DNA from: Lachnospiraceae bacterium
GTDB taxonomy: Bacteria; Bacillota; Clostridia; Lachnospirales; Lachnospiraceae
Direction: 5' to 3'
Assembly (NCBI GenBank): GCA_030540075.1
Contig: JAUNWX010000011.1
Coordinates: 1-51,603 of the forward strand
DNA length: 51,603 bases
Positions 11,188 through 42,380 of the stretch are shown here, one piece after another (the stretch's first letter is position 1; every line of letters begins with the position of its first letter). The position numbers and the translations under genes are program-made. The notes beneath the pieces were generated by a model, which was given only the letters and a program-made list of their open reading frames with translations, ran no database searches and was not told the DNA's origin.

Positions 11188-11408
11188 GGCCGGAGGGCAG
11201 GCATCGGAAACGCAGTACGCCCTGCGGCGGTAAATTCTAAAACAGGACCCCTAAGAAACACTAGGCTCCTTCCAATCACCGGGTTTTCTTTATGAAAACC
11301 CGGCGTTGGAAGGAGTGCTGAGGAAAAATTGCTCCAAGTGTTTCTAAGGGGTCCTGTTTTGAATTTACACGTCCTCGGCGTATGGTTTCCGATGCCTGTC
11401 CTCCGGCC
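11188..11408 (+). repeat. Full copy (B) of the large hairpin repeat family
   Basis: 221 bp, starting 20 nt after the binding-protein stop. The outer arms 11188-11207 and 11389-11408 are complementary at 19 of 20 positions. Further stems are 11230-11237/11361-11368, 11240-11252/11347-11359 (13 bp perfect), AAGAAACACT/AGTGTTTCT, CTCCTTCCAA/TTGGAAGGAG and ACCGGGTTTTC/GAAAACCCGG, with apex TTTAT. Most paired bases differ from other copies, but unpaired pieces such as GCAGTAC, GTGCTGAGGAAAAAT, CTCCAAGTG and CGTATGG are kept. The gap 11168-11513 holds nothing else I can name apart from the AT-rich lead to the next gene. Confidence 0.9.
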
Positions 11409-11513
11409 CTCTGTTTGCTGATAATTTCGTATTTTCTATGTTTTATGTTATTATTGGAATGTTTTTGATTTTCGAAATGAATTAGAGTAAATCGTTCATA
11501 TAAAGGAGTTGTT

Positions 11514-13157
11514 ATGATCAAGGTGAATCAGGTGAAGCTTCCGGTGACGGCGTCGGTGAAGATGCTGCGGCTTCAGTGTGCGAAGCTGCTGGGGATCAAA
11601 CCGGCGGAGATCGCGACGCTGGAGGTGCTGCGGCGGTCGATCGATGCGCGGAAGCGACCGGAGATTTTTTTCAGTTATACGCTGCTGGTGGAGCTCGAGG
11701 GTGGTCTTCGGGCGGAGGAGAAGCTGGTGAAGAAGCTTCGGAACCGGGACGTCGTGATGGGTGAGCGGGTCGAGTACCGTGCGCCGGAGCTCGGGGAGAG
11801 CATCGATGGTGTGTCGCGGCGGGACTACTTCCGCGAGGAGGCGCATCGTCCGGTGGTCGTGGGATTCGGTCCGGCCGGGATGTTTGCGGCGCTGATCCTC
11901 GCGCGGGCGGGGATGCATCCGATCGTGTATGAGCGTGGTGCTTCGGTCGAGGAGCGTGCCCTTGATGTCGAGCGTCTCTGGGCGACGGGCGAGCTGAAGC
12001 CGGACTCGAATCCGCAGTTCGGTGAGGGCGGTGCCGGGACCTTCTCGGATGGTAAGCTGAACACCCTCACGAAGGATCCGGAGGGGCGCAGTCGTTTCAT
12101 CCTGAATCTTTTCGTCGGCTACGGGGCGGATCCGTCGATTCTCATCGATGCGAAGCCGCATGTCGGGACGGACTGTCTCCTCGATGTGGTGCGGGGAATC
12201 CGCTATGAGATCGAGGCGCTCGGCGGCGAGATTCACTTCCATACGAAGTTTACCTACGATCCGGTACGGGATAAGGACCGGAAAATCATCCTCGCGATCG
12301 GTCACTCGGCGCGGGACAGCTATGAGGAGCTCTACGCGGCCGGCCTCCACATGGAGGCGAAGGACTTCGCGATGGGCTTCCGTGTACAGCATCCGCAGGC
12401 GATGATCGACGAGGATCTCTATGGTGCGGTCGATGCGGAGACGCGGGCGGCGCTGGGGCCGGGTGCCTACAAGGTGACGCACACGAGTGCGAAGAACGGG
12501 CGGGGTGTCTACAGCTTCTGTATGTGTCCGGGCGGTTATGTCGTGAACAGCTCGTCGGAGCCGGGACGCCTCTGCGTGAACGGGATGAGCTATCATGCCC
12601 GGGATGGGAAGAACGCCAATGCTGCCATCATCGTGTCGATCCGGAAGTCGGATTATGACGGAGCAGCGCATCCGCTCGGCGGTATCGCGCTGCAGCGGGA
12701 GCTCGAGGCGCGGGCGTACCAGCTGCTGGACGGCCGGGTGCCGGTGCAGACCTACGGGGATTTCAAGGCGAACCGCGAAACCACCGAAGAAACGGTCGGA
12801 AGCATTGGCCCGGAGATCAGGGGGCAGTATGGCTACAGCCGGCTGAACGGGCTTTTCGAGTTCCCAGCGGACTCGCCGTATGCGTCGCTCAATGAGTTCA
12901 ACGAGACTTTCATCGAGGGGATGGAGAGCTTCGAGCACAAGCTGCATGGCTTCGCGCGGGAGGATGCGCTGCTCTGTGGTGTAGAGGCGCGGACCTCGAG
13001 TCCGGTGCGGATTCCGCGGGGTGCGGATTTCTGTTCGAACATCCCGGGGCTCTATCCGTGCGGCGAGGGCGCCGGGTATGCGGGCGGCATCATGAGCGCC
13101 GCGATGGACGGCATGAAAGCCGCGGAAGCACTTGTCAAGTCGTATAATTCATTATAG
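11514..13157 (+). CDS. FAD-dependent oxidoreductase (COG2509-like)
   Basis: Large flavoprotein of the uncharacterised 'NAD(FAD)-utilising dehydrogenase' type, 547 aa. An N-terminal domain of about 105 residues (MIKVNQVKLPVTASVKMLRL...) precedes the dinucleotide motif VVGFGPAGMFAALILARAG, then the family stretch PQFGEGGAGTFSDGKLNT. GRGVYSFCMCPGGYVV in the middle and LYPCGEGAGYAGGIMSAAMDGMKAAEA at the end complete the FAD site. The start is ATG at 11514 after AAAGGAG. It stands alone, between repeat copy B and the proB hairpin. Substrate unknown. Confidence 0.88.
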   Translation: MIKVNQVKLPVTASVKMLRLQCAKLLGIKPAEIATLEVLRRSIDARKRPEIFFSYTLLVELEGGLRAEEKLVKKLRNRDVVMGERVEYRAPELGESIDGVSRRDYFREEAHRPVVVGFGPAGMFAALILARAGMHPIVYERGASVEERALDVERLWATGELKPDSNPQFGEGGAGTFSDGKLNTLTKDPEGRSRFILNLFVGYGADPSILIDAKPHVGTDCLLDVVRGIRYEIEALGGEIHFHTKFTYDPVRDKDRKIILAIGHSARDSYEELYAAGLHMEAKDFAMGFRVQHPQAMIDEDLYGAVDAETRAALGPGAYKVTHTSAKNGRGVYSFCMCPGGYVVNSSSEPGRLCVNGMSYHARDGKNANAAIIVSIRKSDYDGAAHPLGGIALQRELEARAYQLLDGRVPVQTYGDFKANRETTEETVGSIGPEIRGQYGYSRLNGLFEFPADSPYASLNEFNETFIEGMESFEHKLHGFAREDALLCGVEARTSSPVRIPRGADFCSNIPGLYPCGEGAGYAGGIMSAAMDGMKAAEALVKSYNSL

Positions 13158-13184
13158 AATATTCCATTATTTGTTTATTAATTT

Positions 13185-13211
13185 CGGTCGAAGCCTCCGA
13201 GGCTTCGACCG
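13185..13211 (+). other. Perfect 13-bp inverted repeat between the oxidoreductase gene and proB
   Basis: CGGTCGAAGCCTC (13185-13197) is repeated in inverted form at 13199-13211. No T-run follows. A TATACT box at 13217-13222 lies immediately downstream, so the palindrome would cover the -35 region of a proB promoter; it could be a terminator stem or an operator. Confidence 0.6.
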
Positions 13212-13248
13212 AGCGTTATACTGAATATGATCGGTTCTCGGGAGTGTT

Positions 13249-14127
13249 ATGGAAAAAACGAATCATGAGATGAGAGCAAGTTTAAAAGAGAAGAAGCGGA
13301 TCGTGATCAAGGTGGGGTCTGCGAGCATCACCCATAAGGAGACGGGGAGTCTGGATCTTCGGAAGATTGAGAAGCTGGTGCGGGTGATTTCGGATCTGAA
13401 TGCGGAGGGGAAGGATGTGATTCTGGTGTCCTCTGGTGCGATTGCGACGGGTCGGAGTGTGATCGGGATGCACCGGCGGCCGCGGAGTATGGCGGAGAAG
13501 CAGGCGTTTGCGGCGATCGGGCAGGCGCGTCTGATGATGACCTACCAGAAGATTTTCTCGGAGTACAGTGTGATTGCGTCGCAGGTACTGCTGACGAAGA
13601 ACATCATGCTGGATCCGCGTTCGCGTGAGAATGCGACGAATACCTTCCTGGAGCTGCTGAATCTCGGGACGGTGCCGGTCGTGAATGAGAACGATACGGT
13701 GTCGACGTCGGAGATCAACCAGGTCGAGACCTTCGGGGACAACGACCAGCTGGCGGCGATCGTCGGTGCGGTGGTGCATGCGGATCTCGTGATTCTGCTG
13801 TCGGATATCGATGGTCTGTTCACGGATGATCCGAAGAAGAATCCGGATGCGGAGTTTATTCCGTTCATTCCGGAGATCAATGCGGACATCCTCGAGATGG
13901 GGAAGTCGGACAGCGGGTCCAATGTCGGCACCGGTGGGATGAGTGCGAAGCTCGCGGCGGCGCGGATCGCGACGGACAGTGGTGCGGATATGGTGATCGC
14001 GCGCTTCACGAGTGCGGATGTGATCACGGAGATTCTCGATGGGGAGAATGTCGGCACGCTGTTTGCGGCACATGAAAATAAGGATTTTGATCTCGTACAG
14101 TATCTCGAGAGTGAGGAGAATGCATAA
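13249..14127 (+). CDS. proB: Glutamate 5-kinase (without PUA domain)
   Basis: First step of proline synthesis, ATP-dependent phosphorylation of glutamate at the gamma carboxyl. The protein is 292 aa with the amino-acid kinase fold: KRIVIKVGSASIT at the start, VILVSSGAIATG, VPVVNENDTVST, FGDNDQLAAIVG and VGTGGMSAKLAAA. It lacks the C-terminal PUA domain found in the ~367-residue E. coli enzyme, a known short form. RBS GGGAG precedes ATG 13249. The stop shares a base with the ATG of the next gene, and proA follows beyond a repeat. Confidence 0.95.
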   Translation: MEKTNHEMRASLKEKKRIVIKVGSASITHKETGSLDLRKIEKLVRVISDLNAEGKDVILVSSGAIATGRSVIGMHRRPRSMAEKQAFAAIGQARLMMTYQKIFSEYSVIASQVLLTKNIMLDPRSRENATNTFLELLNLGTVPVVNENDTVSTSEINQVETFGDNDQLAAIVGAVVHADLVILLSDIDGLFTDDPKKNPDAEFIPFIPEINADILEMGKSDSGSNVGTGGMSAKLAAARIATDSGADMVIARFTSADVITEILDGENVGTLFAAHENKDFDLVQYLESEENA

Positions 14128-14435
14128 TGGTTACAGAGCAGGATATCAAGCGTATCAATGAGCTTTATCATAAGTCGAAGGAGGGCAGCGGTCTCAGTGA
14201 GGAGGAGAAGGCCGAGCAGGCGACGCTTCGCCGGGCCTACATCGATTCCGTGAAGGCGAACCTCGGCGTGTACCTGAAGGACATTAAGAATGCGTCGAAG
14301 CAGACCGAGCAGGACGCTGCGGACGCCTTCGACCCGAAGGCGAAGGCGCAGCAGGCGATGGCCGCCACCGACGCCCAGCTCGAAGCCGAGAAGGCCATGG
14401 CGGAGACTGACCAGGAAGTCAGGGAAGAGAAGTAA
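14127..14435 (+). CDS. DUF896 (YnzC/UPF0291) family small protein
   Basis: Small cytoplasmic helical protein, 102 aa. The first ~60 residues carry the family signature (IKRINELYHKSKEGSGLSEEEKAEQATLRRAYID), with VKANL and YLKDI following. The family is known from Bacillus YnzC and its function is unclear. Here an Ala/Glu/Gln-rich C-terminal tail of about 40 residues makes it longer than YnzC (about 77 aa). It overlaps the proB stop by one nucleotide, so it is translationally coupled to proline synthesis, an arrangement I cannot explain. Confidence 0.88.
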   Translation: MVTEQDIKRINELYHKSKEGSGLSEEEKAEQATLRRAYIDSVKANLGVYLKDIKNASKQTEQDAADAFDPKAKAQQAMAATDAQLEAEKAMAETDQEVREEK

Positions 14436-14452
14436 ACGTTAACATTCAGGCA

Positions 14453-14678
14453 GGGGTCCCGGAAGGGTGGCAACGGAGGCACAGTACTCCGAGACCGGTT
14501 CAATCTAAGCCGGGGACCCTAAGCGGCACTAGGCCCTCTGCAATCACTGAGTTTTCTTTATGAAAACTCAGCGTTGCAGAGGGTGCTAAGGAAAAATCAC
14601 TCCAAGTGCCGCTAAGGGAACCCGGCTTGATTTCACACGGTCTCTACGTATGGCCTCTATTGCCACCCCTACGGGGCC
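14453..14678 (+). repeat. Full copy (C) of the large hairpin repeat family
   Basis: About 226 bp, starting about 17 nt after the DUF896 stop. Stems from outside in: GGTGGCAA/TTGCCACC (14466-14473/14660-14667), GAGACCG/CGGTCTC, GCCGGG(GA)CCCT/AGGG(AA)CCCGGC, AGCGGCACT/AGTGCCGCT, CCCTCTGCAA/TTGCAGAGGG and CTGAGTTTTC/GAAAACTCAG, apex TTTAT. Conserved loops are GCACAGTACT and CGTATGG, facing each other, and GTGCTAAGGAAAAAT. With the palindrome at 14719 it fills the proB/proA gap. Confidence 0.9.
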
Positions 14679-14718
14679 ACTTAGCTGAACTGTTACAAGT
14701 AAACTTCTGGGTAGCCGA

Positions 14719-14730
14719 GGGTCTGACCCC
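14719..14730. repeat. Short palindromic repeat GGGTCTGACCCC
   Basis: Same sequence as the palindromes at 20758-20856 and 33755-33788. Here it is a single copy 30 bp before proA. Confidence 0.7.
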
Positions 14731-14760
14731 GGTGAGTAGTGATTAGAAAGGAGAGAGACG

Positions 14761-16047
14761 ATGATCGATCTTGAGCGAATCGGTGCGGCGGCGCGCGCAG
14801 CTGCGCGGCAGCTGGCGGTGCTGGATACCGAAAAGAAGAATCAGGTGCTGATGGCGGCGGCGGATGCCCTCGATCGGGAGGAGAACCAGGCGGAGATACT
14901 CCGGGCGAATGCGGAGGATCTCGCCATCGCGGATCAGAATCAGATGGCGGCGGGGCTCCGGGATCGTCTGCGTCTCACGGGGGAGCGTCTCCATGCGATG
15001 GCGGATGCGATCCGCGATATCGCGGCGCTTGAGGATCCGGTCGGCGAAGTGCTGTCCGAGACGGAGCGTCCGAATGGGCTCCGGCTTCAGAAGGTGGCGG
15101 TGCCGATCGGCGTGATCGGGATCATCTATGAGGCGCGTCCGAACGTGACGAGTGACGCCTGGTCCCTCTGCTTCAAGACGGCGAATGCCGTGATCCTGAA
15201 GGGCGGTTCGGATGCGATCCACTCGAACCTCGCGATTACGAAGGTCCTCCGGAGCGCCATCGAGGCCGCCGGCATTGACCCGAACGTACTGCAGCTCATC
15301 GAGGCGACGGATCACGAGACGACGAACCGCTTCATGCAGATGAACGAGTACGTGGATGTGCTGATTCCGCGCGGCTCACACCGGCTGATCCAGGCGGTCG
15401 TGCGCAATGCTTCCGTGCCGGTCATCGAGACCGGTGCCGGGAACTGTCACATCTTCCTCGACGAGGGTGCGGATGGGACGAAGGCCGTGCCGATTGTGTT
15501 TAATGCGAAGACGCAGCGTATCGGTGTGTGCAATGCCTGCGAGTCGCTGGTCGTGGATGCGCGGGTGCTGTCGACGGTGCTCGTGCCGGTGATCCGGAAG
15601 CTGCAGGAGAGGCAGGTCGAGGCGTACTGTGATGCGCCGAGTCTCGCAGCGGTGCAGGCGGCGGCAGAAGCCGGGGAGGGCATCGACATGGGCCTCGTGC
15701 ATCCGGCGATGGAGGAGGACTTTACGACGGAGTACCTCGACTATAAGATTTCGGTGAAGACGGTAGACTCGGTGGCGGAGGCGATCGCGCACATCAACCG
15801 CTGCAGCACCGGCCACAGTGAGGCAATCATCACGGAGGATGCGGCGCATGCGGAGCAGTTCCTGAACGGGATCGACAGTGCCTGTGTCTACTGGAATGCG
15901 TCGACGCGTTTCACGGATGGCGGCTGCTTCGGCTTCGGTGCCGAGATCGGCATCTCGACCGGGAAGCTCCACGCGCGGGGCCCGATGGGGCTTCGGGAGC
16001 TCACCACCTATAAATATAAGATCTACGGAGATGGACAGATCCGTTGA
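14761..16047 (+). CDS. proA: Glutamate-5-semialdehyde dehydrogenase (gamma-glutamyl phosphate reductase)
   Basis: Second step of proline synthesis, NADPH-dependent reduction of glutamyl 5-phosphate. The protein is 428 aa, the standard length. Catalytic Cys257 lies in GVCNACESLV. Other family pieces are PIGVIGIIYEARPNVT, NAVILKGGSDAIHSN, ETGAGNCHIFLD and the C-terminal FGAEIGISTGKLHARGPMGLRELTTYKY. RBS GGAGAGAG precedes ATG 14761. It is separated from proB by DUF896 and repeat copy C, so a joint transcript would contain the whole hairpin. Confidence 0.97.
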   Translation: MIDLERIGAAARAAARQLAVLDTEKKNQVLMAAADALDREENQAEILRANAEDLAIADQNQMAAGLRDRLRLTGERLHAMADAIRDIAALEDPVGEVLSETERPNGLRLQKVAVPIGVIGIIYEARPNVTSDAWSLCFKTANAVILKGGSDAIHSNLAITKVLRSAIEAAGIDPNVLQLIEATDHETTNRFMQMNEYVDVLIPRGSHRLIQAVVRNASVPVIETGAGNCHIFLDEGADGTKAVPIVFNAKTQRIGVCNACESLVVDARVLSTVLVPVIRKLQERQVEAYCDAPSLAAVQAAAEAGEGIDMGLVHPAMEEDFTTEYLDYKISVKTVDSVAEAIAHINRCSTGHSEAIITEDAAHAEQFLNGIDSACVYWNASTRFTDGGCFGFGAEIGISTGKLHARGPMGLRELTTYKYKIYGDGQIR

Positions 16048-16053
16048 ATTCTG

Positions 16054-16128
16054 CAGGGCCCCGGAGGGCCGGCATCAGAAGCACAGTTTCTACGTATGGC
16101 GTCTGCTGTCGGTCCTCCGGGGACCTTT
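16054..16128 (+). repeat. Short copy (D) of the hairpin repeat family, outer arms only
   Basis: Begins 6 nt after the proA stop. The outer arms (CCCCGGAGGGCCGGCA type against CTGTCGGTCCTCCGGGG) remain, while GCACAGT is joined almost directly to TACGTATGG, so the ~130-nt central domain of full copies is missing. It ends in the same flank, GGCTGAA, as the copy at 39470. Confidence 0.85.
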
Positions 16129-16179
16129 GGCTGAAATGATACCAAAACATAGATATGTACAGAAAGTTGATTCGTTTTT

Positions 16180-17658
16180 ATGGACTATATAATTGATTAT
16201 AAAGAAATCGTGGAGCAGGCTCCGGTGGAGGAGCCTGCGCGGCAGTACTATTTTATGGACCGTGTCCGTGAGCTCGTGGAGATAAAGAAGCAGGAGGGCT
16301 ATGCGGCGCACTGTATGGTCGAGGTGATGGGCTGTCAGATGTCGGCGAAGGATGGCGAGAAGCTGCTCGGTATCCTGGAGCGCTGCGGCTACACGGTGAC
16401 GGAGGATGACCGGGATGCGGATGTGGTGCTGTTCACGACCTGCACGGTGCGGGAGAATGCGAACATGAAGCTCTACGGTCGGGTCGGTCGTCTGAAGCAT
16501 CAGTACGAGCGCCGCGACGGGATGATCATCGGGATCACCGGCTGCATGATGCAGGAGAAGGACGAGGTCGAGGGGATCCGGAAGCGTTATCCGTACGTGC
16601 GTCTCGTCTTCGGTACGCACAATGTCTACAAGCTCGCGGAGCTTCTGTACCAGACACTCGTGACCGGAAAGCGGACCTTCGAGGTGCTCGACGATACGAA
16701 GATGATCGTCGAGGAGCTGCCGAGTGACCGTCGTTACCGCTTCAAGGGCGCGGTGAACATCAGCTACGGCTGCAATAATTTCTGCACCTACTGTATCGTG
16801 CCGTACGTGCGTGGTCGGGAGAAGTCGCGGAATGCGACGGCGATCCTGCGTGAGTGCGAGCAGCTGATCGCGGATGGCTGTCTCGAGATCACCCTGCTCG
16901 GTCAGAATGTCAATTCCTATGGCAATGATATCCCGGGCAGCACGAGCTTCCCGGAGCTGCTCGCTGCCGTGGCGGAGCTGCCGGGCCTCCGGCGCGTCCG
17001 CTATATGACCTCGAACCCGAAGGATCTTTCGGATGAGCTCATCGAGGTGATGAAGACGCATCCGAACATCGAGCGGCACATTCACCTGCCGCTGCAGTCC
17101 GGCTCCAGCGCGATCCTCAAGCGCATGAACCGTCACTATACGAAGGAGAGCTACCTCGCGCTCGTGGAGAAAATCCGCCGGGAACTGCCGGATGTGGCGC
17201 TCAGCACGGATATCATCGTGGGCTTCCCGGGTGAGACCGAGGCGGACTTTCAGGATACCGTAGACGTCGTGCAGAAGGCGCAGTTCGACGCGGCTTACAC
17301 CTTCATCTACAGCAAGCGGACGGGCACGCCGGCGGCGAGCTTCGAGCAGGTGCCGGAGGAGGACGTGAAGGATCGCTTCGACCGTCTTCTGAAGGTCGTG
17401 CAGGAGAGCTCGGCGGCGAACGAGACGCGTGACCTTGGGAAGACCATGGAGGTCCTCGTCGAGGATGAGAACAAAAACCAGGAGGGCTACCTCACGGGAC
17501 GCCTCTCGAACAGCGTGCTCGTGCATTTCCCGGGCCCGAAGGAGATGATCGGCACCATGCAGATGGTGAAGCTCACGGAGTCGAAGGGCTTCTACTACTT
17601 CGGCGAGCTCGTCGGACGGCAGTCGGAAACACAGTACTGCGAGACCGGTTCAATCTAA
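16180..17658 (+). CDS. miaB: tRNA-2-methylthio-N6-dimethylallyladenosine synthase
   Basis: Radical SAM methylthiotransferase acting on i6A37 of tRNAs, the step after MiaA, which is encoded at 23.3 kb. The protein is 492 aa. The N-terminal UPF0004 domain has three cluster cysteines (MGCQMS, TTCTVREN, TGCMMQ). The radical SAM motif is C198-xxx-C202-xx-C205 (GCNNFCTYC), and a TRAM domain ends the protein. The start at 16180 has no clear RBS, but the N-terminal EPARQYYFMDRVREL is a feature of clostridial MiaB. The last residues, about SETQYCETGSI, are encoded by repeat copy E rather than by ancestral miaB sequence. Confidence 0.96.
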   Translation: MDYIIDYKEIVEQAPVEEPARQYYFMDRVRELVEIKKQEGYAAHCMVEVMGCQMSAKDGEKLLGILERCGYTVTEDDRDADVVLFTTCTVRENANMKLYGRVGRLKHQYERRDGMIIGITGCMMQEKDEVEGIRKRYPYVRLVFGTHNVYKLAELLYQTLVTGKRTFEVLDDTKMIVEELPSDRRYRFKGAVNISYGCNNFCTYCIVPYVRGREKSRNATAILRECEQLIADGCLEITLLGQNVNSYGNDIPGSTSFPELLAAVAELPGLRRVRYMTSNPKDLSDELIEVMKTHPNIERHIHLPLQSGSSAILKRMNRHYTKESYLALVEKIRRELPDVALSTDIIVGFPGETEADFQDTVDVVQKAQFDAAYTFIYSKRTGTPAASFEQVPEEDVKDRFDRLLKVVQESSAANETRDLGKTMEVLVEDENKNQEGYLTGRLSNSVLVHFPGPKEMIGTMQMVKLTESKGFYYFGELVGRQSETQYCETGSI

Positions 17659-17826
17659 GCCAGGGACCCTAAGCGGCACTAGGCCCTCTGCAATCGCTGA
17701 GTTTTCTTCATGAAAACTCAGCGTTGCTAGAGGGTGCTAAGGAAAATGTACCAAGTGCCGCTAAGGGGACCTGACTTGATTTCACACGGTCTCTACGTAT
17801 GGCTTCCGCCTGCTGTCCGCCGAGCT
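17606..17826 (+). repeat. Full copy (E) of the large hairpin repeat family, overlapping the miaB 3' end
   Basis: The outer arms 17606-17626 and 17806-17826 are complementary apart from a few mismatches, with the left arm lying inside miaB codons. The core matches copy C closely: GAGACCG/CGGTCTC, GCCAGGGACCCT against AGGGGACCTGAC (a G-C to A-T swap relative to copy C), AGCGGCACT/AGTGCCGCT and CTGAGTTTTC/GAAAACTCAG. One arm of the CCCTCTGCAA stem has an extra base (TTGCTAGAGGG), and the GGAAAA loop is shorter, so this copy is partly decayed. Confidence 0.88.
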
Positions 17827-17948
17827 ACGCCTTGACTTAACGACGTTTCAACAGTGACGGGCGGAAGGCAGATGTGTGTATTGGCCCCGGCAGCGGGCGG
17901 AATGGAAGACAGAAGGACCTGCGGGCAGCAGGCAGCGAAAGGAAACAG

Positions 17949-20741
17949 ATGGCTGAGAAAAAGTTGTCGCCGATGATGGCGGAGTACCTCGAAACCAAAA
18001 AGCAGTATCCGGACTGCATCCTCTTTTATCGCATCGGCGATTTCTACGAGATGTTCTATGAGGATGCGAAGACGGCGTCGTCGGTGCTGGACCTGGTGCT
18101 GACGGGCAAGGACTGCGGACAGGCGGAGCGGGCACCGATGTGCGGCATCCCGTTCCATGCGGCGGACAGCTATGTGACGCGTCTCGTGGGCGCGGGCTAC
18201 AAGGTGGCCATCGCGGAGCAGCTCGAGGATCCGAAGCTCGCGAAGGGACTGGTGAAGAGAGGGGTCATCCGCGTGGTGACACCGGGAACATTGACCGCCG
18301 AGCAGGGGCTCGATGAGACGAAGAACAACTTCCTCATGAGCATCTTCTACGATGCGTCGGGCTTCGGCGTCAGCAGCGTCGATGTGTCGACCGGTGAGTT
18401 CCTGACGACGACCTGCGGCACGGTGAAGGAGGTGCTCGATGAGCTGAGCCGCTTCCAGCCGGCGGAGATCGTGTGCAATCAGGCGTTTATGATCTCGGGC
18501 GCGGACACGGATTTCATCAAGGACCGCTTCAATCTGATTATCACGGAGCTCGAGGATTCTGTATACAAGGACGAGGCGGCGACGAAGCTGCTTGAGGAGC
18601 ATTTCCATGCGAGCATCCAGGGGATCGGCCTCGCGGACCGGGACCTCGCGCGTCTGAGCGCCGCGGCGGCACTGCACTATGTTTATGAGACGCAGAAGAA
18701 CACCGTCGCGCATATCTCGAACATCCGCTACTACGCAAGCAGCCAGTATATGATCATCGACACCGCGACGCAGCGGAACCTCGAGCTCATCGAGACGATG
18801 CGGGAGAAGAAAAAGCGCGGGACGCTGCTCTGGGTCCTCGACAAGACCCGGACCGCGATGGGCGCACGTATGCTCCGGCGCTTCCTCGAGCAGCCGCTCA
18901 TCGACCGGGCGCAGATCCTCGCGCGGCAGGACGCCATCGAGGAGCTCTGCGGGCACTATATCGACCGCGAGGAGATGTCCGAGTACCTGAACACCGTCTA
19001 CGATTTCGAGCGTCTGCTCGGAAAGATCTGCTATAAGACGGCGAATCCGCGCGACCTCATCGCCTTCAAGCAGTCGCTCCGTATGCTGCCGGATATCCGG
19101 CAGGAGCTCGGGCTCTTCGAGTCCCCGCTCATGAAGGAGATCCACGAGGGCATCGACGAGATGCAGGAGCTCTACCAGATGATCGACCAGGCGATCGTGG
19201 AGGATCCGCCGGTCTCGAGCCGTGATGGCGGGATCATTCGCGAGGGCTACCACGAGGAGGCGGACCGCTACATGCAGTCGAAGCTGAACGGTAAGCAGTG
19301 GCTCGCGGAGCTCGAGCAGCGGGAGCGGGAGCGCACGGGCATCAAGACCCTGAAAGTGAAGTTCAACCGTATCTTCGGCTACTGCATCGAGGTGACGAAC
19401 AGCTTCAAGGACCTCGTGCCGGCGGACTATATCCGGAAGCAGACCCTGACGGGCGCGGAGCGCTACACGACGGAGGAGCTCGAGAAGCTCCAGAATGAGA
19501 TCCTCGGTGCGGAGGAGAAGCTGCACCAGCTCGAGTACGAGCTTTTCTGTGATGTGCGGGATACCATCGCGGAGAACGTGCAGCGTGTGCAGAAGACCTC
19601 GCATTATGTGGCGCTGCTCGACTGCCTGATCTCGCTTTCGAAGGTCGCGACGAGCAACAACTACTGCCGTCCGGAGATCAACGAGGCGGGGCGTATCGAC
19701 ATCAAGGATGGGCGTCATCCGGTCATCGAGAAGCTCCTCCAGGATGGGATGTTTGTGACCAATGATACCCGCCTCGACGATACGACGGACCGGATCGCCA
19801 TCATCACCGGACCGAATATGGCCGGTAAGTCGACCTACATGCGGCAGGTGGCGCTGATCGTGCTGATGGCGAGCATCGGCTCCTTCGTGCCGGCGAGCCA
19901 CGCGGACATCTCGATCTGCGACCGCATCTTCACGCGGGTCGGCGCAAGCGACGACCTCGCGTCCGGGCAGTCGACCTTCATGGTGGAGATGAACGAGGTG
20001 GCGAACATCCTCCGGAATGCGACGACGAAGTCGCTGCTGATCCTCGACGAGATCGGCCGCGGTACCTCGACCTTCGACGGCCTCAGCATCGCCTGGGCCG
20101 TGGTCGAGTACATCGCGAAGGTCGTTCGGGCGAAGACCCTCTTCGCCACCCATTACCACGAGCTCACCGAGCTCGAGGGACGGCTGGACGGCGTCAACAA
20201 TTACTGTATCGCGGTCACCAACCACGATCAGGACATCGTGTTCCTGCGGAAGATCATCCCTGGGGGCGCCGACCAGTCGTACGGCATCGACGTGGCGAGT
20301 CTCGCCGGCGTGCCGCGCCCGGTCATCGACCGGGCGAAGGAGATCGCCGCGGAGCTCAGCGACGCGGATATCCTCGCGAAGGCGCGCGAGCTCGACCGCG
20401 AGCCGGGCTTCCGTCAGGAAAGCCTCGCGCTCGAGGAGAGCGGCGCCGGCGCGGACGGAGACCTGGCCTTCGGTGCAGGGGATGCGACGAAGGGCATGGT
20501 CGCGGAGCGGCAGCCGGGTGCGGCAGCACAGCCGGGCAATGCTGCGGCCGCAGCAGGCACCACAGCCGGCGGCACAAGTCCGGCAGCAGGAGCAGCAGCT
20601 GTCCCAGCTGCCGAACCGGCGCTCCCGGCCTCAATCCGCGACGCCATCGACTACCTCCGCGCCATCGACATCAACCACATGACCCCACTCGACGCCATGA
20701 ACACCCTCTACGAACTGAAGGATCGCTTCAAACTGTCCTGA
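17949..20741 (+). CDS. mutS: DNA mismatch repair protein MutS
   Basis: Recognises mismatches and recruits MutL. The protein is 930 aa from ATG 17949, which has AAAGGA upstream; an earlier in-frame ATG at 17874 would add 25 atypical residues. The mismatch-reading FYE motif is at 32-34 (GDFYEMF), Walker A is GPNMAGKS at 621-628, and LLILDEIGRGTSTFDG and FATHYHELTELE are Walker B and the H-loop region. An Ala/Gly/Pro-rich linker at about 841-894 separates the ATPase from the C-terminal helical tip (IRDAIDYLRAIDINHMTPLDA). mutL follows after a 168-bp gap containing palindromes. Confidence 0.97.
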   Translation: MAEKKLSPMMAEYLETKKQYPDCILFYRIGDFYEMFYEDAKTASSVLDLVLTGKDCGQAERAPMCGIPFHAADSYVTRLVGAGYKVAIAEQLEDPKLAKGLVKRGVIRVVTPGTLTAEQGLDETKNNFLMSIFYDASGFGVSSVDVSTGEFLTTTCGTVKEVLDELSRFQPAEIVCNQAFMISGADTDFIKDRFNLIITELEDSVYKDEAATKLLEEHFHASIQGIGLADRDLARLSAAAALHYVYETQKNTVAHISNIRYYASSQYMIIDTATQRNLELIETMREKKKRGTLLWVLDKTRTAMGARMLRRFLEQPLIDRAQILARQDAIEELCGHYIDREEMSEYLNTVYDFERLLGKICYKTANPRDLIAFKQSLRMLPDIRQELGLFESPLMKEIHEGIDEMQELYQMIDQAIVEDPPVSSRDGGIIREGYHEEADRYMQSKLNGKQWLAELEQRERERTGIKTLKVKFNRIFGYCIEVTNSFKDLVPADYIRKQTLTGAERYTTEELEKLQNEILGAEEKLHQLEYELFCDVRDTIAENVQRVQKTSHYVALLDCLISLSKVATSNNYCRPEINEAGRIDIKDGRHPVIEKLLQDGMFVTNDTRLDDTTDRIAIITGPNMAGKSTYMRQVALIVLMASIGSFVPASHADISICDRIFTRVGASDDLASGQSTFMVEMNEVANILRNATTKSLLILDEIGRGTSTFDGLSIAWAVVEYIAKVVRAKTLFATHYHELTELEGRLDGVNNYCIAVTNHDQDIVFLRKIIPGGADQSYGIDVASLAGVPRPVIDRAKEIAAELSDADILAKARELDREPGFRQESLALEESGAGADGDLAFGAGDATKGMVAERQPGAAAQPGNAAAAAGTTAGGTSPAAGAAAVPAAEPALPASIRDAIDYLRAIDINHMTPLDAMNTLYELKDRFKLS

Positions 20742-35797: not shown

Positions 35798-35819
35798 TGT
35801 CGTCTGTATACAGACGACA
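35798..35819. promoter_or_regulatory. Perfect 22-bp palindrome upstream of sepF
   Basis: Half-site TGTCGTCTGTA followed at once by its inverted copy, with no spacer and no T-run. It lies 30 bp after the HlyD-like gene and about 95 bp before the first sepF promoter. The form suits a dimeric regulator, but a weak terminator stem is also possible. The rest of the 273-bp gap holds the promoters and an ATTCGGAT/ATCCGAAT inverted pair. Confidence 0.5.
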
Positions 35820-35891
35820 TCCAGTGAATGGATTCGGATTCCCGGAAGATTGTTTCTTCTGAAAAACATCGGTCGAGCATCCGAATAGACC

Positions 35892-35991
35892 TTTACAAAA
35901 AGTGAAAATGATGTAAAATTTCACTATTCTGTGTTTTCATGTCAAAACACGGAGCTGTATTTATTGACAAGCAAAGATAATTGTATAAAAT
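35892..35991 (+). promoter_or_regulatory. Two tandem promoters of sepF
   Basis: TTTACA (35892-35897), 16 bp, TAAAAT (35914-35919), and TTGACA (35964-35969), 16 bp, TAAAAT (35986-35991). The second gives a leader of about 45 nt before ATG 36040. Confidence 0.65.
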
Positions 35992-36039
35992 AGACCTTAT
36001 GAATAGTAGGGAAACTGCGTGTACACGGGGGTTAAGTAA

Positions 36040-36570: not shown

Positions 36571-36585
36571 TCAAAATGATACAGG

Positions 36586-36614
36586 GCGGAGGGGCTTCGG
36601 CTCCTCCGCTCTTT
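36586..36614 (+). terminator. TTCG-tetraloop hairpin after sepF
   Basis: GCGGAGGGGC pairs with GCTCCTCCGC around TTCG (36586-36609), followed only by CTTT. A short T-run, so termination may be partial. Confidence 0.65.
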
Positions 36615-36624
36615 ACGTTATGTG

Positions 36625-36671
36625 GCAGGTGCCCCGTATGGCTTCTGCTGCCGGCCCTCCGGGGCACCTGC
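36625..36671 (+). repeat. Remnant (I) of the hairpin repeat family
   Basis: Arms GCAGGTGCCCC (36625-36635) and GGGGCACCTGC (36661-36671) pair perfectly. Between them are GTATGGC and the 3' arm CTGCCGGCCCTCC, so the left arm was deleted up to the conserved GTATGG. It follows the sepF terminator. Confidence 0.75.
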
Positions 36672-36767
36672 GTGAACTGTACGCTATAGCGGAAAGAATA
36701 TTTCGGAACTGTATTTTATAAAGTCTGTATGGTAAAATGAAATGAGTTTTTGCAGGGGGACGGTTAG

Positions 36768-37850: not shown

Positions 37851-37851
37851 G

Positions 37852-38355
37852 ATGAAAGAGAATTCGAAACGTTGGGGTATTTTTCTGCTGCTGGCGCTGG
37901 TGCTGGTTGGGCTTGACCAGTTCACGAAGCAGCTTGCGGTGGAGCATCTGATGGGGGCGGAGCGTGTGCCGATCATCCGGAATGTGCTTTACCTGCTGTA
38001 TATCGAGAACCGCGGTGCGGCGTTCGGCAGCCTGCAGGGCGCGCAGGTTTTCTTCTATATCATCACGGTCGTGGTGCTGTGCGGCATCGTCTATGTCGTG
38101 CATCGCATCCCGCAGGGCGACCGGCATTTTCTGCCGCTGCTTCTCGTGTGCGAGCTGATCTTTTCAGGCGCGATCGGTAATTTCATCGACCGTGTCCGCC
38201 AGCAGTATGTCGTCGATTTCATCTATTTCAGCCCGATCGATTTTCCGGTGTTCAATGTTGCCGATATCTACGTGACAGTGGGCTGCGCCCTGATGGTCGT
38301 GCTCTTCCTGTTCTACTATAAGGATGAGGAGCTCGGCTTCCTGCATCGGCCCTGA
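37852..38355 (+). CDS. lspA: Lipoprotein signal peptidase
   Basis: Cleaves the signal peptide of prolipoproteins before the lipidated cysteine. The protein is 167 aa with four TM segments. The aspartic protease pair is D113 (GNFIDRV) and D138 (FNVADIY), and VVDFIYF and NRGAAFG are conserved. Its likely clients here include the binding lipoprotein at 9.9 kb and the carboxypeptidase at 32.7 kb. AAGGAG at the end of aroB serves as the RBS. The stop codon lies inside the first of three hairpins. Confidence 0.96.
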   Translation: MKENSKRWGIFLLLALVLVGLDQFTKQLAVEHLMGAERVPIIRNVLYLLYIENRGAAFGSLQGAQVFFYIITVVVLCGIVYVVHRIPQGDRHFLPLLLVCELIFSGAIGNFIDRVRQQYVVDFIYFSPIDFPVFNVADIYVTVGCALMVVLFLFYYKDEELGFLHRP

Positions 38356-38443
38356 CCTTGAGCTTGTAAGGCTCAAGGTCAGCCCTTCGGGCACAGAACA
38401 AGTTCTGTGGGATATCGTTCCGGAGTTTGCTGATGCAAACTCC
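38352..38443 (+). other. Three consecutive perfect hairpins between lspA and the pseudouridine synthase gene
   Basis: CTGACCTTGAGC/GCTCAAGGTCAG (38352-38363/38371-38382, containing the lspA stop), CACAGAAC/GTTCTGTG (38392-38399/38402-38409) and GGAGTTTGC/GCAAACTCC (38422-38430/38435-38443). No T-run follows any of them. The third, with its tail TACACTC, recurs as GTTTGC/GCAAACTCCTACGCTC in the obgE leader (43398-43422). Confidence 0.75.
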
Positions 38444-38470
38444 TACACTCAATGAGGAGCGCTGAGAACC

Positions 38471-39463
38471 ATGAGTAAGGAAAGAGAAACGGAGCTCGAG
38501 CTGGAGCTGGATGAGGACGTAGAGGCAGAAGCAGGGACGGTCGAGATCCGTGTGCCGGCGGAGCTGTCTCCGGTTCGGATCGATCAGTACCTCGCGACGC
38601 TGAAGGAGCCGGAGATTTCGCGGAGCTATGCGGCGAAGCTGCTGAAGGAGGAGCGTATCCTTCTCAACGGGAAGCCGGCGAAGGCGAGTACGAAGCTGAA
38701 GGCCGGCGATGTGCTGTCGCTGGATCTGCCGGCACCGGTGGCGCTCGACGTGGAGCCGGAGGACATCCCGCTCGATATCGTCTACGAGGATCAGGATGTG
38801 CTGATCGTGAATAAGCCGAAGGGGATGGTCGTGCATCCGGCGGCGGGGCATGCGCAGGGCACCCTCGTGAATGCGGTGATGTATCATTGTGGTTCGGAGC
38901 TCAGCTCCATCAACGGGGTGATGCGTCCGGGCATCGTGCACCGCATCGATATGAACACGACGGGGCTGCTTGTGGTCTGCAAGAACGACCAGGCGCATAA
39001 ATTTCTCGCGGCGCAGCTGAAGGTCCATTCCATCACCCGCCGCTACGTGGCAATCGTGATCGGAAACCTCCGGGAGGACGACGGCACCGTGGATGCGCCG
39101 CTCGGCCGCTCGAAGAAGGACCGGAAGAAGCAGGCCATCGATGAGCTGAACGGTCGTCCGGCGGTGACGCACTACCATGTGCTCGAGCGTTTCGGTGGGG
39201 CGTATACCCTCGTGCAGTGCACGCTCGAGACGGGGCGCACGCATCAGATCCGTGTGCACATGGCCTCCCTCGGCCATCCGTTGCTCGGCGACGAGGTCTA
39301 TGGGCCGAAGAAGTGCCCGTTTGACCTCCAGGGGCAATGTCTCCATGCGCAGGTGTTGGGCTTCATTCATCCGCGAACCGGGGAGTACGTCGAGTTCAGC
39401 TCGCCGTATCCGCCGTATTTCGAAGAGCTTCTGACGAAACTTCGAAATAAATATAACAGTTAA
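38471..39463 (+). CDS. RluA/RluD-family 23S rRNA pseudouridine synthase
   Basis: 330-aa rRNA pseudouridine synthase. A Glu/Asp-rich N-terminal leader of about 25 residues precedes an S4 RNA-binding domain (VRIDQYLATLKEPEISRSYAAKLLKEERILLNG). The catalytic loop is HRIDMNTTGLLVV with Asp160; the usual form is HRLDxxTSG, so the change is conservative. GRTHQIRVHMASLGHPLLGDEVYG is a further signature. It follows lspA as in B. subtilis (lspA-ylyB). GAGGAG is about 12 nt from the ATG. Confidence 0.93.
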   Translation: MSKERETELELELDEDVEAEAGTVEIRVPAELSPVRIDQYLATLKEPEISRSYAAKLLKEERILLNGKPAKASTKLKAGDVLSLDLPAPVALDVEPEDIPLDIVYEDQDVLIVNKPKGMVVHPAAGHAQGTLVNAVMYHCGSELSSINGVMRPGIVHRIDMNTTGLLVVCKNDQAHKFLAAQLKVHSITRRYVAIVIGNLREDDGTVDAPLGRSKKDRKKQAIDELNGRPAVTHYHVLERFGGAYTLVQCTLETGRTHQIRVHMASLGHPLLGDEVYGPKKCPFDLQGQCLHAQVLGFIHPRTGEYVEFSSPYPPYFEELLTKLRNKYNS

Positions 39464-39469
39464 TGTAGA

Positions 39470-39527
39470 GGGACCCGGAGGGGCGGCAACGGAGGCACAG
39501 TACTCCATTGCCGCCCCTCCGGGTCCC
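39470..39527 (+). repeat. Short copy (F) of the hairpin repeat family with a perfect 20-bp stem
   Basis: Arms 39470-39489 and 39508-39527 are fully complementary, closed by an 18-nt loop containing GGAGGCACAGTACTCC. The central domain is absent. Starts 6 nt after the preceding stop and ends in CATGGCTGAA. No T-run. Confidence 0.9.
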
Positions 39528-39573
39528 CATGGCTGAAATTCACGAAAAATTAAAATTTTCGGGCGCAGAGCTG

Positions 39574-39582
39574 TGCTAGAAT
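39574..39582 (+). promoter_or_regulatory. Extended -10 promoter of the NlpC/P60 gene
   Basis: TGC followed by TAGAAT (39577-39582) fits an extended -10; no good -35 box is seen. Transcription would start at about 39589-39590, at or beside the ATG at 39590. Confidence 0.5.
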
Positions 39583-39589
39583 GTAGCCT

Positions 39590-42154
39590 ATGAAAAAAAC
39601 TGATTTCCCTATCCATATGAATAAAAAACAGACGGTAGCCACAGCAGTTTTACTGGCTGCCGGTCTTGTTGTGTCCATCGCGGCGCAGCACTATGGCGCA
39701 GCACCGGTGGAGACGACGCCTGCAGAAACCGAGACGGTCGTCGAGGAAGAGACATTGGCCACCCTCAGCGAGCTGCCGAAGGCGAACGGCCTCAATTTCG
39801 GAGGCCTGCGATCTTCCCTCGCGAACCTCATGGACAGTGAGAGTGCGTCGCAGTTCCAGCCGGCGCCGGATAAGCTGAACCTCGCGTACTTCTACCGCGA
39901 CGGCGCGGATACCAGCGACACCATCCACAGCTACGCCGGTGAAGTCTACCAGAAGCTGATGACCGCCGACAACGAGTACCTCGCGAAGATCTACGATGAG
40001 GCGGGCGTGTCGCCGCTGAACCTTGCGAAGCGCCTCGGCGTGAGCTCGAGCCGCGTCATGGGTAAGTATAACCCGAACGCCGGCGGGCAGGATCCGAACA
40101 ACGCCGCGACCTGGTACATCCCGAACTTCAAAAATGTCAATGTCTCCTTCTATAACGCAGATGGCGAGCAGGTAAACGAGTACTCGAACGTCAAGGACAT
40201 CATGGCGATGGCGTCCGTTTACTGCTATGCACACGATTATCTCGACGTCGATACCTTCGAGAAGTACTGCGAGGAGCTCTACAGCAAGTCGCGGAAATAT
40301 ACGATCAGCATCGGAAATGTCTACTACGACAGCGGCTGTATCAACCGGACCGCGAAGGAAGAGGCGGACGACGCAAAGAAGGTTGAGGAGGCACTGGCTG
40401 CGCTGAAGCTGCAGCTGCAGGCCGCGACGAACCGGAGCGAGGGACTGCTCACGCAGAATGCACTGTCGGCGGGCAGTGCGGCGATCTCTGCGCAGAACCA
40501 GCAGGTGCTGAACCTGACGGGTGACAGCAGCACCATGACGACGGCGGAGATGAAGAACTATGAGACCCAGACGGATGCCGAGGGCAATGCCGGCGGCAAG
40601 GGGATCATCTTTCATTCGGACAGCGCCAGCAGCCAGGGCGCGGTGACGAGTGTGCCGGAGAGTGCGGCGGCTTCGACGGAAGCCGAGACGCAGGAAGCCG
40701 CCCAGACGGCGGCACCGGTGCAGACCGCCGCGCCGACCCAGGCGCAGACGCAGACGCAGGCGGCAGCACAGACGCAGGCCGCATCCAATAACAGTATGCT
40801 GGTGCTTGGCGCGATGCAGCCGGTGAAGAAGATGGCGCAGGCGGCGCAGGAAACGCTGGCGTCACTCGATGGGGTTCACTACGGAACACCGGGGAATTAT
40901 GGTTCTGCGAGGGAGTATGCGGAGGCACAGAAGAAGGCGCGTGCCGCGGCTTCCCTGACCAGCAGCATGCTGGTCTTCGGCGACAGTGATACCGCGGCGG
41001 CGAGTGCCGTACCGGAGACGGCGGCGGTTTCGACCGAGGCGAGTGAGACCCAGGCGGTCGTTTCTGCTGCGACGACGCCGACGAGTACCGAGGATACGAC
41101 CTACGAGACGGATGAAAACGGGCAGAAAAAGAAGCGCTATGCGGGCTACGAGGCCGGCAAGGGCATCGATGAGGTGAATAAGCAGGCGACAAGCGCAGCG
41201 GCCGCGAGCAGCAGTGCGGGTGGTGACGTTCAGGCGACGACAGCATTGGACGACAGCCAGCAGACCGTGATCGGTACCTTCACGGGCGAGCAGCTGAAGA
41301 ACATGGATGAAAACACGCTTCGTCAGCTCGTGCAGCAGAGCCTCGCAGCCGAGGAAACCAGGCAGAGCACGAATACTGAGACGGATGTCAAGAGCAAGAA
41401 CTACTGCCCGGGCCATGTGGACCTCTATGTGAAGGTGACGATCTACGGCTTCGAGGATGCGAAGGGCCTCCGTACGGTGGCGCTCTCTGCCGACGACCAG
41501 GATGAAAACGAGGCGACGAAGAGCCTCGATGCGGCGCTCGCGCGGAATGGCTGGAACGGCTGGACCGAGGAGCAGATGGGCTATGTGCAGAAGCTGATTT
41601 CGCAGGACTGGTTCAAGACCTATGGTCTCTCGATCTCGACCATCAATCCGAAGCAGCCGCTGACGGAGGAGGAGATCTCGAAGTACCTGTCCTCGCTTCC
41701 GGAGGATATTTCGGACGAGCGGAAGGCTGTCATTCAATTTGCGCTTTCGTCGGTCGGCAAGATCCCGTATTACTGGGGCGGCAAGGCGAGTGCGGCGAGC
41801 TATGAGAAGAACGGCTTCGGTCGTGTCGTAGAGGCAGACTACAAGGGCCGTGTGCTGCGGGGCCTCGACTGCTCCGGCTGGGTACAGTGGGTGTACTGGT
41901 CGGCGATCGGGAACCGACTGAACGGCGCGAGCAGTACGGCGACGCTCATCGGTGAGGGACAGAAGATCAAGCGGTCGGAGCTGCAGCCGGGCGATATCGT
42001 CGTCCGTGTCGGCGCGGATTCGCATGTCGTGATGTTCCTGCAGTGGGCCGGGAACGGAAACATGATCGTCATCCATGAGAACTCTGGTGCGAATAATGTG
42101 TCGGTGAGTGAGGTGACGGCAAACTATCCGTATTACCGGAAGTTAATTGATTAA
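39590..42154 (+). CDS. Secreted NlpC/P60-family cell-wall hydrolase
   Basis: Extracellular cysteine peptidase, probably cutting peptidoglycan stem peptides, 854 aa. The N-terminal segment MNKKQTVATAVLLAAGLVVSIAA is a signal peptide or anchor. A unique region follows (about 50-300), then Ala/Thr/Gln/Ser-rich low-complexity linkers (about 340-610), then the C-terminal NlpC/P60 domain with Cys761 (LDCSGWVQWVYW) and His812 (DSHVVMFL), with ENSG near the end. ATG 39590 has no RBS; ATG 39620 is an alternative, also without one. It stands alone between two repeat copies. Target bond and role in growth or division are inferred from the family. Confidence 0.88.
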   Translation: MKKTDFPIHMNKKQTVATAVLLAAGLVVSIAAQHYGAAPVETTPAETETVVEEETLATLSELPKANGLNFGGLRSSLANLMDSESASQFQPAPDKLNLAYFYRDGADTSDTIHSYAGEVYQKLMTADNEYLAKIYDEAGVSPLNLAKRLGVSSSRVMGKYNPNAGGQDPNNAATWYIPNFKNVNVSFYNADGEQVNEYSNVKDIMAMASVYCYAHDYLDVDTFEKYCEELYSKSRKYTISIGNVYYDSGCINRTAKEEADDAKKVEEALAALKLQLQAATNRSEGLLTQNALSAGSAAISAQNQQVLNLTGDSSTMTTAEMKNYETQTDAEGNAGGKGIIFHSDSASSQGAVTSVPESAAASTEAETQEAAQTAAPVQTAAPTQAQTQTQAAAQTQAASNNSMLVLGAMQPVKKMAQAAQETLASLDGVHYGTPGNYGSAREYAEAQKKARAAASLTSSMLVFGDSDTAAASAVPETAAVSTEASETQAVVSAATTPTSTEDTTYETDENGQKKKRYAGYEAGKGIDEVNKQATSAAAASSSAGGDVQATTALDDSQQTVIGTFTGEQLKNMDENTLRQLVQQSLAAEETRQSTNTETDVKSKNYCPGHVDLYVKVTIYGFEDAKGLRTVALSADDQDENEATKSLDAALARNGWNGWTEEQMGYVQKLISQDWFKTYGLSISTINPKQPLTEEEISKYLSSLPEDISDERKAVIQFALSSVGKIPYYWGGKASAASYEKNGFGRVVEADYKGRVLRGLDCSGWVQWVYWSAIGNRLNGASSTATLIGEGQKIKRSELQPGDIVVRVGADSHVVMFLQWAGNGNMIVIHENSGANNVSVSEVTANYPYYRKLID

Positions 42155-42380
42155 GGCCCGGAGGGCCGAACCCGGAAGCACAGTACTGCGAGATCGGAAA
42201 GCTCTAAGTCGGGCGCCCTAAGCGGCACTAGGCCCTCTGCAAACGACTGAGTTTCCTTTTATGGAAACTCAGTGTTGCAGAGGGTGCTAAGGAAAAATTA
42301 CTCCAAGTGCCGCTAAGGGTGCCCGGCTTGAGTTTTCACGATCTCTTCGTATGGCTTCCGGGTTCGGTCCTCCGGGACCT
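42155..42380 (+). repeat. Full copy (G) of the large hairpin repeat family, directly abutting a stop codon
   Basis: 226 bp whose first base follows the TAA of the NlpC/P60 gene. Outer arms pair as GGCCCGGAGGGCCGAACCCGG against CCGGGTTCGGTCCTCCGGGACC with few mismatches. Inside: GAGATCG/CGATCTC (copy C has GAGACCG/CGGTCTC), GTCGGGCGCCCT/AGGGTGCCCGGC, AGCGGCACT/AGTGCCGCT, CCCTCTGCAA/TTGCAGAGGG and CTGAGTTTCC/GGAAACTCAG. Conserved GCACAGTACT, GTGCTAAGGAAAAAT and CGTATGG are present. Confidence 0.92.

What the first reader, a model, noticed from the sequence alone, without database searches (positions are those of the whole stretch)
11188..42380. Family of ~220-bp structured repeats with compensatory base changes between copies
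Full copies at 11188-11408, 14453-14678, 17606-17826 and 42155-42380 fold into the same long hairpin. Stems change while staying paired: AGCGGCACT/AGTGCCGCT in three copies is AGAAACACT/AGTGTTTCT in the copy at 11188; CCCTCTGCAA/TTGCAGAGGG becomes CTCCTTCCAA/TTGGAAGGAG; GAGACCG/CGGTCTC becomes GAGATCG/CGATCTC in the copy at 42155. Unpaired segments stay nearly fixed: GCACAGTACT facing CGTATGG, and GTGCTAAGGAAAAAT. Paired change with fixed loops is the mark of a selected RNA or a single-stranded DNA structure. I do not recognise the family and see no encoded protein in it. It may be an undescribed ncRNA class or a non-autonomous mobile element.
Basis: seen in the sequence. Interest (0 to 1): 0.85.

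Follow-up and report, generated by a model that had tools for sequence, protein, structure and literature searches.

The report
Giant-hairpin mobile DNA repeat family
The window holds several copies of a non-coding jumping DNA element of Oribacterium bacteria that folds into a giant hairpin and tends to sit at the ends of genes; the two sides of the hairpin change together, but more likely through DNA-level copying and exchange than because it is a proven functional RNA.

Summary
All four copies exist and fold into one long hairpin; the window's genome has at least 49 full copies and ten internally deleted ones. In a 29-copy alignment 51 of 82 pairs show double-sided changes, against 25.6 in shuffles. 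Rfam has no match.

As far as searched the family is Oribacterium's: 34 of 35 pattern hits; 10 of 17 genomes of the genus, own included. It is mobile in the window's genome: 7 of 49 copies have GTAACAGTTCAG-type ends with an 8-bp duplication, four perfect. The copy at 42155 is absent from all 11 relatives read, eight showing the unduplicated site. Against this, eight of 74 relative elements have both ends but none a duplication.

Paired changes are weak evidence for a selected RNA. G-U is hardly favoured over A-C in the alignment (40:32 cells; another count gave 47:17). Single-sided differences stay near five per comparison while doubles accumulate. Both arms are replaced together in nested copies.

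I conclude: a palindromic MITE whose arms stay matched mainly at DNA level. An RNA role is not excluded; no transposase was found.

The parts
11175..11421 (+). full copy 1 (subfamily AAGAAACACT); starts 7 nt after the end of a solute-binding protein gene (9920-11167)
14438..14696 (+). full copy 2 with terminal repeats GTTAACATTCAG (degenerate) / CTGAACTGTTAC
14430..14437 (.). left target-site duplication AAGTAAAC of copy 2; contains the TAA stop of the upstream gene
14697..14704 (.). right target-site duplication AAGTAAAC of copy 2
17594..17838 (+). full copy 3; fused to the 3' end of a miaB-like gene whose frame runs 15 codons past the conserved FGEL; the outer stem seems to reach the codons for GEL (by eye)
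42143..42390 (+). full copy 4 as matched by the model; the upstream gene ends at 42154; absent from 11 of 11 relatives read
16046..16135 (+). internally deleted mini copy (outer stem with short tip)
39460..39537 (+). internally deleted mini copy, tip GGAGGCACAGTACTCC
46282..46351 (+). left half of a copy, ending 15 nt before the ATG of the next gene (46367)
1..82 (-). partial copy at the contig start

Best explanation
This is a palindromic MITE (a non-autonomous, non-coding transposable element) of Oribacterium, 253-283 bp between its terminal repeats where both were found, without the optional apical module. SHOWN: many dispersed copies; in some own-genome copies, terminal repeats of the form GTAACAGTTCAG/CTGAACTGTTAC with 8-bp target duplications; an unoccupied site in relatives for the window copy at 42155; placement mostly against gene 3' ends; internally deleted copies. 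INFERRED: a DDE transposase acting in trans on these ends moves it (IS66-like by the form of the ends, recalled), and the ends decay with age while the hairpin body persists. INFERRED, less certain: the arms stay complementary mainly through DNA-level processes. The folded strand serves as its own template (template switching), or hairpin ends are exchanged between copies, so that both arms are rewritten in one event. That would give double-sided changes, apices swapped as a unit, and copies nested at symmetric points. Selection for a foldable RNA or ssDNA may add to this but is not needed for the pairing.
For: Copies: 49 full and 10 mini in one genome (150 of 609 candidates scored, so a lower bound). 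Ends with an 8-bp duplication in 7 of 49 own copies: CTGTAAAT, AAGTAAAC, AAATAAAG, CAATGCAT perfect, two with 1 mismatch, one with 2, best of nine offsets, ends at up to 3 mismatches; with ends at up to 2 mismatches 8 copies have both ends and 6 of them a duplication, reversed control 0 of 49 with both. The same ends bound other non-coding cargo with 8-bp duplications (GGATTAAG, GATCAGGC; read), and GTRACAGTTCAGCC occurs 11-48 times in four genomes and 0-2 times in the other 13, reversed control 0. Copy 4: 8 of 11 relatives read GTTAATAAATTAATT where the window has GTTAATTGATTAA[element]AATTAATT. Position: one end lies within 20 nt of a stop codon in 35 of 49 own copies (counted) and within 25 nt in 24 of 35 relative loci, their ends approximated (counted). 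Arm coupling: single-sided differences stay at about 5 per comparison at all divergences while doubles rise from 4.4 to 23; G-U 40 to A-C 32 cells; five nested copies at four loci with symmetric junctions among 74 relative elements, two of them with un-nested orthologues; an 80-nt apical module in 14 of 74, present or absent between orthologues at three loci; an orthologous pair whose only hairpin difference is one double change (L209/L212).
Against: Eight of 74 relative elements have both ends (seven of them good), yet none has a duplication at 2 or fewer mismatches, so insertion through these ends is shown for the window's genome only. No autonomous partner was found: the candidate end of the genome's IS66 reads GTAAGCGCTCAG, and a scan of ten IS66 loci found no GTAA-ended inverted repeats at all, so that scan is weak. 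Isolated mismatches in all 49 copies gave G-U 47 to A-C 17, or 29 to 13 without one recurrent position, which suggests some RNA-level tolerance. In three of the least altered orthologous pairs single changes outnumber doubles: L198/L220 2:0, L206/L252 7:1, L204/L248 5:0. Sense orientation is favoured in the window's genome (24:7).
Confidence: 0.65

Rival explanations
1. A selected structured RNA: once mobile, the element acts in transcripts as a 3'-end mRNA stabiliser or as a small RNA, and pairing is kept by selection on the RNA.
For: Strong covariation; fixed internal motifs; sense bias 24:7 in the window's genome; isolated mismatches G-U 47 to A-C 17; positions right after stop codons.
Against: G-U 40 to A-C 32 cells in the alignment; orientation 11:10 in the relatives' loci; no Rfam match; unpaired columns as a whole change more than stems; arms exchanged as blocks.
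Confidence: 0.25
2. A transcription terminator: the hairpin serves as a strong intrinsic terminator, or inserts into existing terminators.
For: Often at gene 3' ends; L260, the orthologue of L215, carries AGAGCCGGAGGG-TTG-CCCTCCGGCTCTTTT, and L258, the orthologue of L219, a GC-rich hairpin; the copy at G000:C41:5268 is followed by a T run.
Against: T runs of 4 or more lie beside the 3' end in 10 of 49 copies, A runs of 4 or more in 8 of 49. The unoccupied site of copy 4 has no hairpin (by eye). The outer stem GAGCCGGAGGGCATCC is shared by other copies and L265 keeps left-arm sequence, so L260 is better read as an internal deletion.
Confidence: 0.08
3. An element moved as folded single-stranded DNA (REPIN/RAYT- or IS200-like), the hairpin being selected for mobility.
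For: REPINs also show compensatory changes on both sides of a hairpin (PMC3116915, passages); the small G-U preference suits ssDNA; relative elements with both ends but no duplication.
Against: 8-bp target duplications with terminal repeats in own copies fit a DDE transposase, not an HUH one (family knowledge, recalled). No search for a RAYT or HUH gene was made.
Confidence: 0.12

Closest known systems
Prokaryotic MITEs (review PMC10969869, passages read; e.g. QMITE2, Chunjie-1)
   Same: Non-coding, short, terminal inverted repeats, direct repeats of 7-9 bp (QMITE2), intergenic preference, stable stem-loops predicted for transcripts, size variants and truncated copies.
   Different: Here nearly the whole 250-285 bp is one imperfect palindrome with fixed internal motifs, exchangeable apices and nested copies; the body is GC-rich; these ends are not named in the passages read.
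REPINs (PMC3116915, passages read)
   Same: Dispersed extragenic hairpins with compensatory changes in both arms.
   Different: [quoted passage not shown] own copies here have terminal repeats with 8-bp duplications.
IS66-family insertion sequences (recalled: ends begin GTAA, 8-bp duplications)
   Same: Ends begin GTAA and end TCAG; 8-bp duplications; an IS66 transposase is present in the genome.
   Different: The candidate IS66 end is GTAAGCGCTCAG, 9 of 12 identical; no IS66 with GTAACAGTTCAG was found.
Template-switch maintained RNA hairpins (PMC8794818, abstract and outline)
   Same: The proposed mechanism, multibase compensatory changes made by one DNA-replication event, fits the block changes here.
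   Different: The section titles concern rRNA and other RNA genes; here a mobile palindrome with apex swaps and nesting.

Membership tests
MITE (non-autonomous DNA transposon) | multiple dispersed, non-coding copies | tested here: met
   49 full copies in the own genome; no ORF of 100 aa or more lies within a window copy, though gene 16180-17658 reads into copy 3 and a mechanical minus-strand ORF 17793-20225 overlaps its end
MITE (non-autonomous DNA transposon) | terminal inverted repeats | tested here: met
   both ends in 9 of 49 own copies at up to 3 mismatches, or 8 of 49 own and 8 of 74 relative elements at up to 2 (reversed control 0 and 0 with both; 3 own and 7 relative single ends)
MITE (non-autonomous DNA transposon) | target-site duplication / unoccupied site | tested here: met
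   own genome: 7 of 49 with an 8-bp duplication at 0-2 mismatches; unoccupied site of copy 4. Not met in relatives: 0 of the 8 elements with both ends
MITE (non-autonomous DNA transposon) | autonomous partner with the same ends | tested here: inconclusive
   fetched IS66 loci lack these ends; repeat-collapsed contig ends carry the ends but their interior was not recovered
IS66-derived element | ends homologous to an IS66 element | tested here: inconclusive
   GTAACAGTTCAG against GTAAGCGCTCAG, 9 of 12
Structured ncRNA class | match to a curated family | tested here: not met
   0 at gathering score; only MAT2A_E at E 0.05 and 0.99
Structured ncRNA class | covariation beyond controls | tested here: met
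   0 of 500 shuffles reach it; R-scape not available
Structured ncRNA class | wobble tolerance (G-U well above A-C) on one strand | tested here: inconclusive
   40:32 cells; 47:17 isolated mismatches, 29:13 without one position
Structured ncRNA class | transcription as a defined RNA | not testable with these tools
   no RNA-seq available
Intrinsic terminator | T run directly after the hairpin | tested here: not met
   10 of 49 with a T run of 4 or more, 8 of 49 with an A run of 4 or more, in the 30 nt at the 3' end
REPIN | partner RAYT transposase and GTAG-type REP ends | not tested
   no RAYT search made; terminal repeats differ

The most novel reading that the evidence does not exclude
Folded hairpins of this family recombine with one another as if they were duplex ends. 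One exchange in the folded state replaces the apex, or a whole stretch of both arms, giving symmetric nested copies, swapped apical modules and arms that rewrite neighbouring codons. RNA-style covariation would then arise without selection on RNA, and hairpins could spread by capping other hairpins as well as by transposition.
Probability: 0.3. Interest if true: 0.72.

Novelty: new variant of a known kind. Interest (0 to 1): 0.47.

Why it matters
Covariation is the standard evidence for functional RNA structure. A repeat family with very strong covariation that is better explained by arm-to-arm DNA events would be a natural counter-example for calibrating covariation tests, and a system with dozens of copies per genome in which template switching or hairpin exchange can be measured. 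It also documents a mobile element of one genus that reshapes gene 3' ends, including the last codons of a miaB-like gene.

Tried and rejected
Insertion into hairpin or terminator loops. L215/L260 and L233/L273 first suggested that the element inserts into the loop of an existing hairpin. Not kept as a general rule: copy 4's unoccupied site has no hairpin, the outer stem is shared by other copies, and L265 keeps left-arm remnants, as after an internal deletion. Of the eight less-occupied orthologues compared, L202/L241 and L228/L031 show nesting; L215/L260, L257/L265 and L233/L273 I read as deletions; L219/L258, L222/L260 and L212/L157 stay unclear.

RNA function from sense orientation. 24:7 in the own genome was not repeated in the relatives' loci, 11:10.

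Relative ends. My first scan of relatives' terminal repeats (4 of 74 with both ends) used search windows that were too narrow. One search repeats it with wider windows (8 of 74), still with no duplications.

Autonomous IS66 partner. Searched with PF03050 in the own genome and the genus, scans of fetched loci and repeat-bearing contig ends: not found.

Spread outside the genus. Model R1 in 120 same-family genomes (17 candidates scored in each, strict filters) matched the own genome and G042 (E 5.5e-13). The G042 hit (L127) is a long palindrome; the model rewards any palindrome (real copies also score on the reverse strand), so I do not count it as homologous. Viral contigs: 0. The first genome-wide pattern found 0, the second 35; each covers one subfamily only.

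Arm extension into coding sequence over all copies. The script's trimming rule stopped at an internal loop in most copies, so only copy 3 and G000:C41:5268 were judged, by eye; anecdotal.

Literature. Six searches listed no paper on this family. PMC8794818 and PMC1590033 were seen as abstract and outline (the former with part of its introduction), PMC10969869 and PMC3116915 as passages; the others only as listings.

Full report
The observation. An alignment of 29 copies of the same genome (two partial matches left out) gives 82 pairs, 51 of them with double-sided changes, more than in any of 500 shuffles or in the slid structures. The family is not in Rfam at gathering score; the only weak match is MAT2A_E.

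Extent and host. Model R1, built from those copies, finds 49 full copies in the 2.3-Mb genome and ten of 77-90 bp that keep the outer stem and lack the core (150 of 609 candidates scored; fragments at contig edges not counted). Five of the ten minis run through CACAGTACTCC straight into the right arm, as after a deletion at a palindrome. Ten of the 17 genomes of the genus, own included, hold the family. A core pattern hits 35 loci among 84,980 genomes, 34 of them titled Oribacterium and one an uncultured Lachnospiraceae bin. I therefore take the genus to be Oribacterium; equal contig lengths show that G004 is NK2B42 and G012 is KHPX15. In 120 same-family genomes only the own genome and one doubtful palindrome match.

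It is mobile. Seven of 49 own copies have both terminal repeats (up to 3 mismatches) and an 8-bp duplication, four of them perfect; two further copies with end-like sequence have none. Copy 2 of the window is bounded by AAGTAAAC at 14430-14437 and 14697-14704. The region before the L21 gene was read in 11 relatives: none has the element, and eight show one undivided GTTAATAAATTAATT where the window has the element between two ATTAA copies. The same ends bound other non-coding cargo: relics of about 870-1230 bp, tandem arrays, solo hairpins. Against this, eight of 74 relative elements have both ends (seven good, 271-283 bp apart) and none a duplication. In relatives the insertion route is therefore not shown: the duplications may have decayed, or the hairpin body may have been exchanged into older end-bearing hairpins. 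The ends resemble IS66 ends in form (recalled), but no IS66 with these ends was found, so the transposase is unknown.

Where it sits. A codon-usage gene caller puts 35 of 49 full copies after a same-strand gene, 28 of these within 12 nt of its end; five of the seven copies between two antisense genes also abut a gene end (counted). Fourteen of 49 do not lie within 20 nt of a stop codon. In 35 relative loci 24 lie within 25 nt of a stop codon (ends approximated), with no strand preference: 11 (+,+) against 10 (-,-). T runs are not clearly enriched. Copy 3 is fused to a miaB-like gene: of 12 relatives, nine end in FGEL or FGEI plus 1-6 residues and three otherwise, whereas the window's frame continues for 15 codons past FGEL into the element. 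Its right arm also matches the GEL codons (CGAGCTACGCC against GGCGAGCTCG, one bulge, by eye), as if host sequence had been copied into the other arm. One further copy (G000:C41:5268) pairs across the last codons of both neighbours (by eye). These two cases are suggestive only.

Why paired change need not mean RNA. (a) In pairwise comparisons single-sided differences stay at about 5 while doubles grow from 4.4 to 23 with divergence: mismatches are transient, which fits strong selection or correction. (b) If RNA pairing were the target, G-U should be well tolerated (recalled). The alignment has 40 G-U and 32 A-C cells of 2372, in 21 and 20 columns (counted). Isolated mismatches in all 49 copies give 47 and 17, or 29 and 13 without one recurrent position. 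The test is inconclusive: at most a modest wobble preference. (c) Both arms are replaced together. Five of 74 relative elements, at four loci, are nested, one element lying in place of the apex of another with matching junctions on both arms; two have un-nested orthologues (L202/L241, L228/L031). An 80-nt apical module occurs in 14 of 74 and in none of the 49 own copies, and differs between orthologues at three loci. (d) Of 14 orthologous pairs compared, five could not be counted because the fold was broken. The other nine, single to double: L198/L220 2:0, L209/L212 0:1, L206/L252 7:1, L204/L248 5:0, L201/L237 17:5, L202/L241 8:10, L196/L236 4:12, L216/L234 4:9, L198/L235 2:10. The last groups include exchanged blocks; the least altered pairs show that correction is not immediate. 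The published precedent is template switching that creates or mends hairpins (PMC8794818, abstract).

Conclusion. The element is a palindromic MITE, a known kind, in an unusual form: a very long imperfect palindrome with fixed internal motifs, modular apices, nesting and jointly evolving arms. An RNA function remains possible (about 0.25).

Noticed in passing
G000: L158-L161, L163, L170; L166, L167; G004/G012: L320, L322, L323, L325: Other non-coding families share the ends GTAACAGTTCAG...CTGAACTGTTAC: relics of about 870-1230 bp, two with perfect 8-bp duplications (GGATTAAG, GATCAGGC), solo hairpins of 47 and 50 bp, and end-bounded tandem arrays with a period of about 53 bp.
   Followed up: partly
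L308, L310, L311 (G004 contig starts); L309, L312: The same 311-325 bp end at several contig starts suggests larger multi-copy elements with these ends, collapsed in the assembly; they may be the autonomous partner.
   Followed up: partly
L127 (G042:C89:15190-15453 with flanks): In another genus of the family, an almost fully self-complementary stretch of at least 380 nt; probably not homologous, origin unknown.
   Followed up: no
14 relative elements, e.g. L226, L229, L247: An 80-nt apical module with extra small hairpins (AAAGAATCC..GGATTC, CCCAAGATT..AATCTTGGG) is present at the apex of some copies and absent from all 49 own copies.
   Followed up: partly
L208, L224, L233 (relatives): Three elements with intact ends and no duplication share the bases ACGGA(C) just outside the left end, so the unit or its target may extend further than I drew it.
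   Followed up: no
window 16180-17658: The miaB-like gene reads 15 codons past the conserved FGEL into copy 3, instead of stopping as in relatives.
   Followed up: yes
G000:C55:51-485 and C6:41-502: IS66 transposase matches lie at two contig ends; a candidate right end reads GTAAGCGCTCAG, similar to but not the same as the ends of this family.
   Followed up: partly
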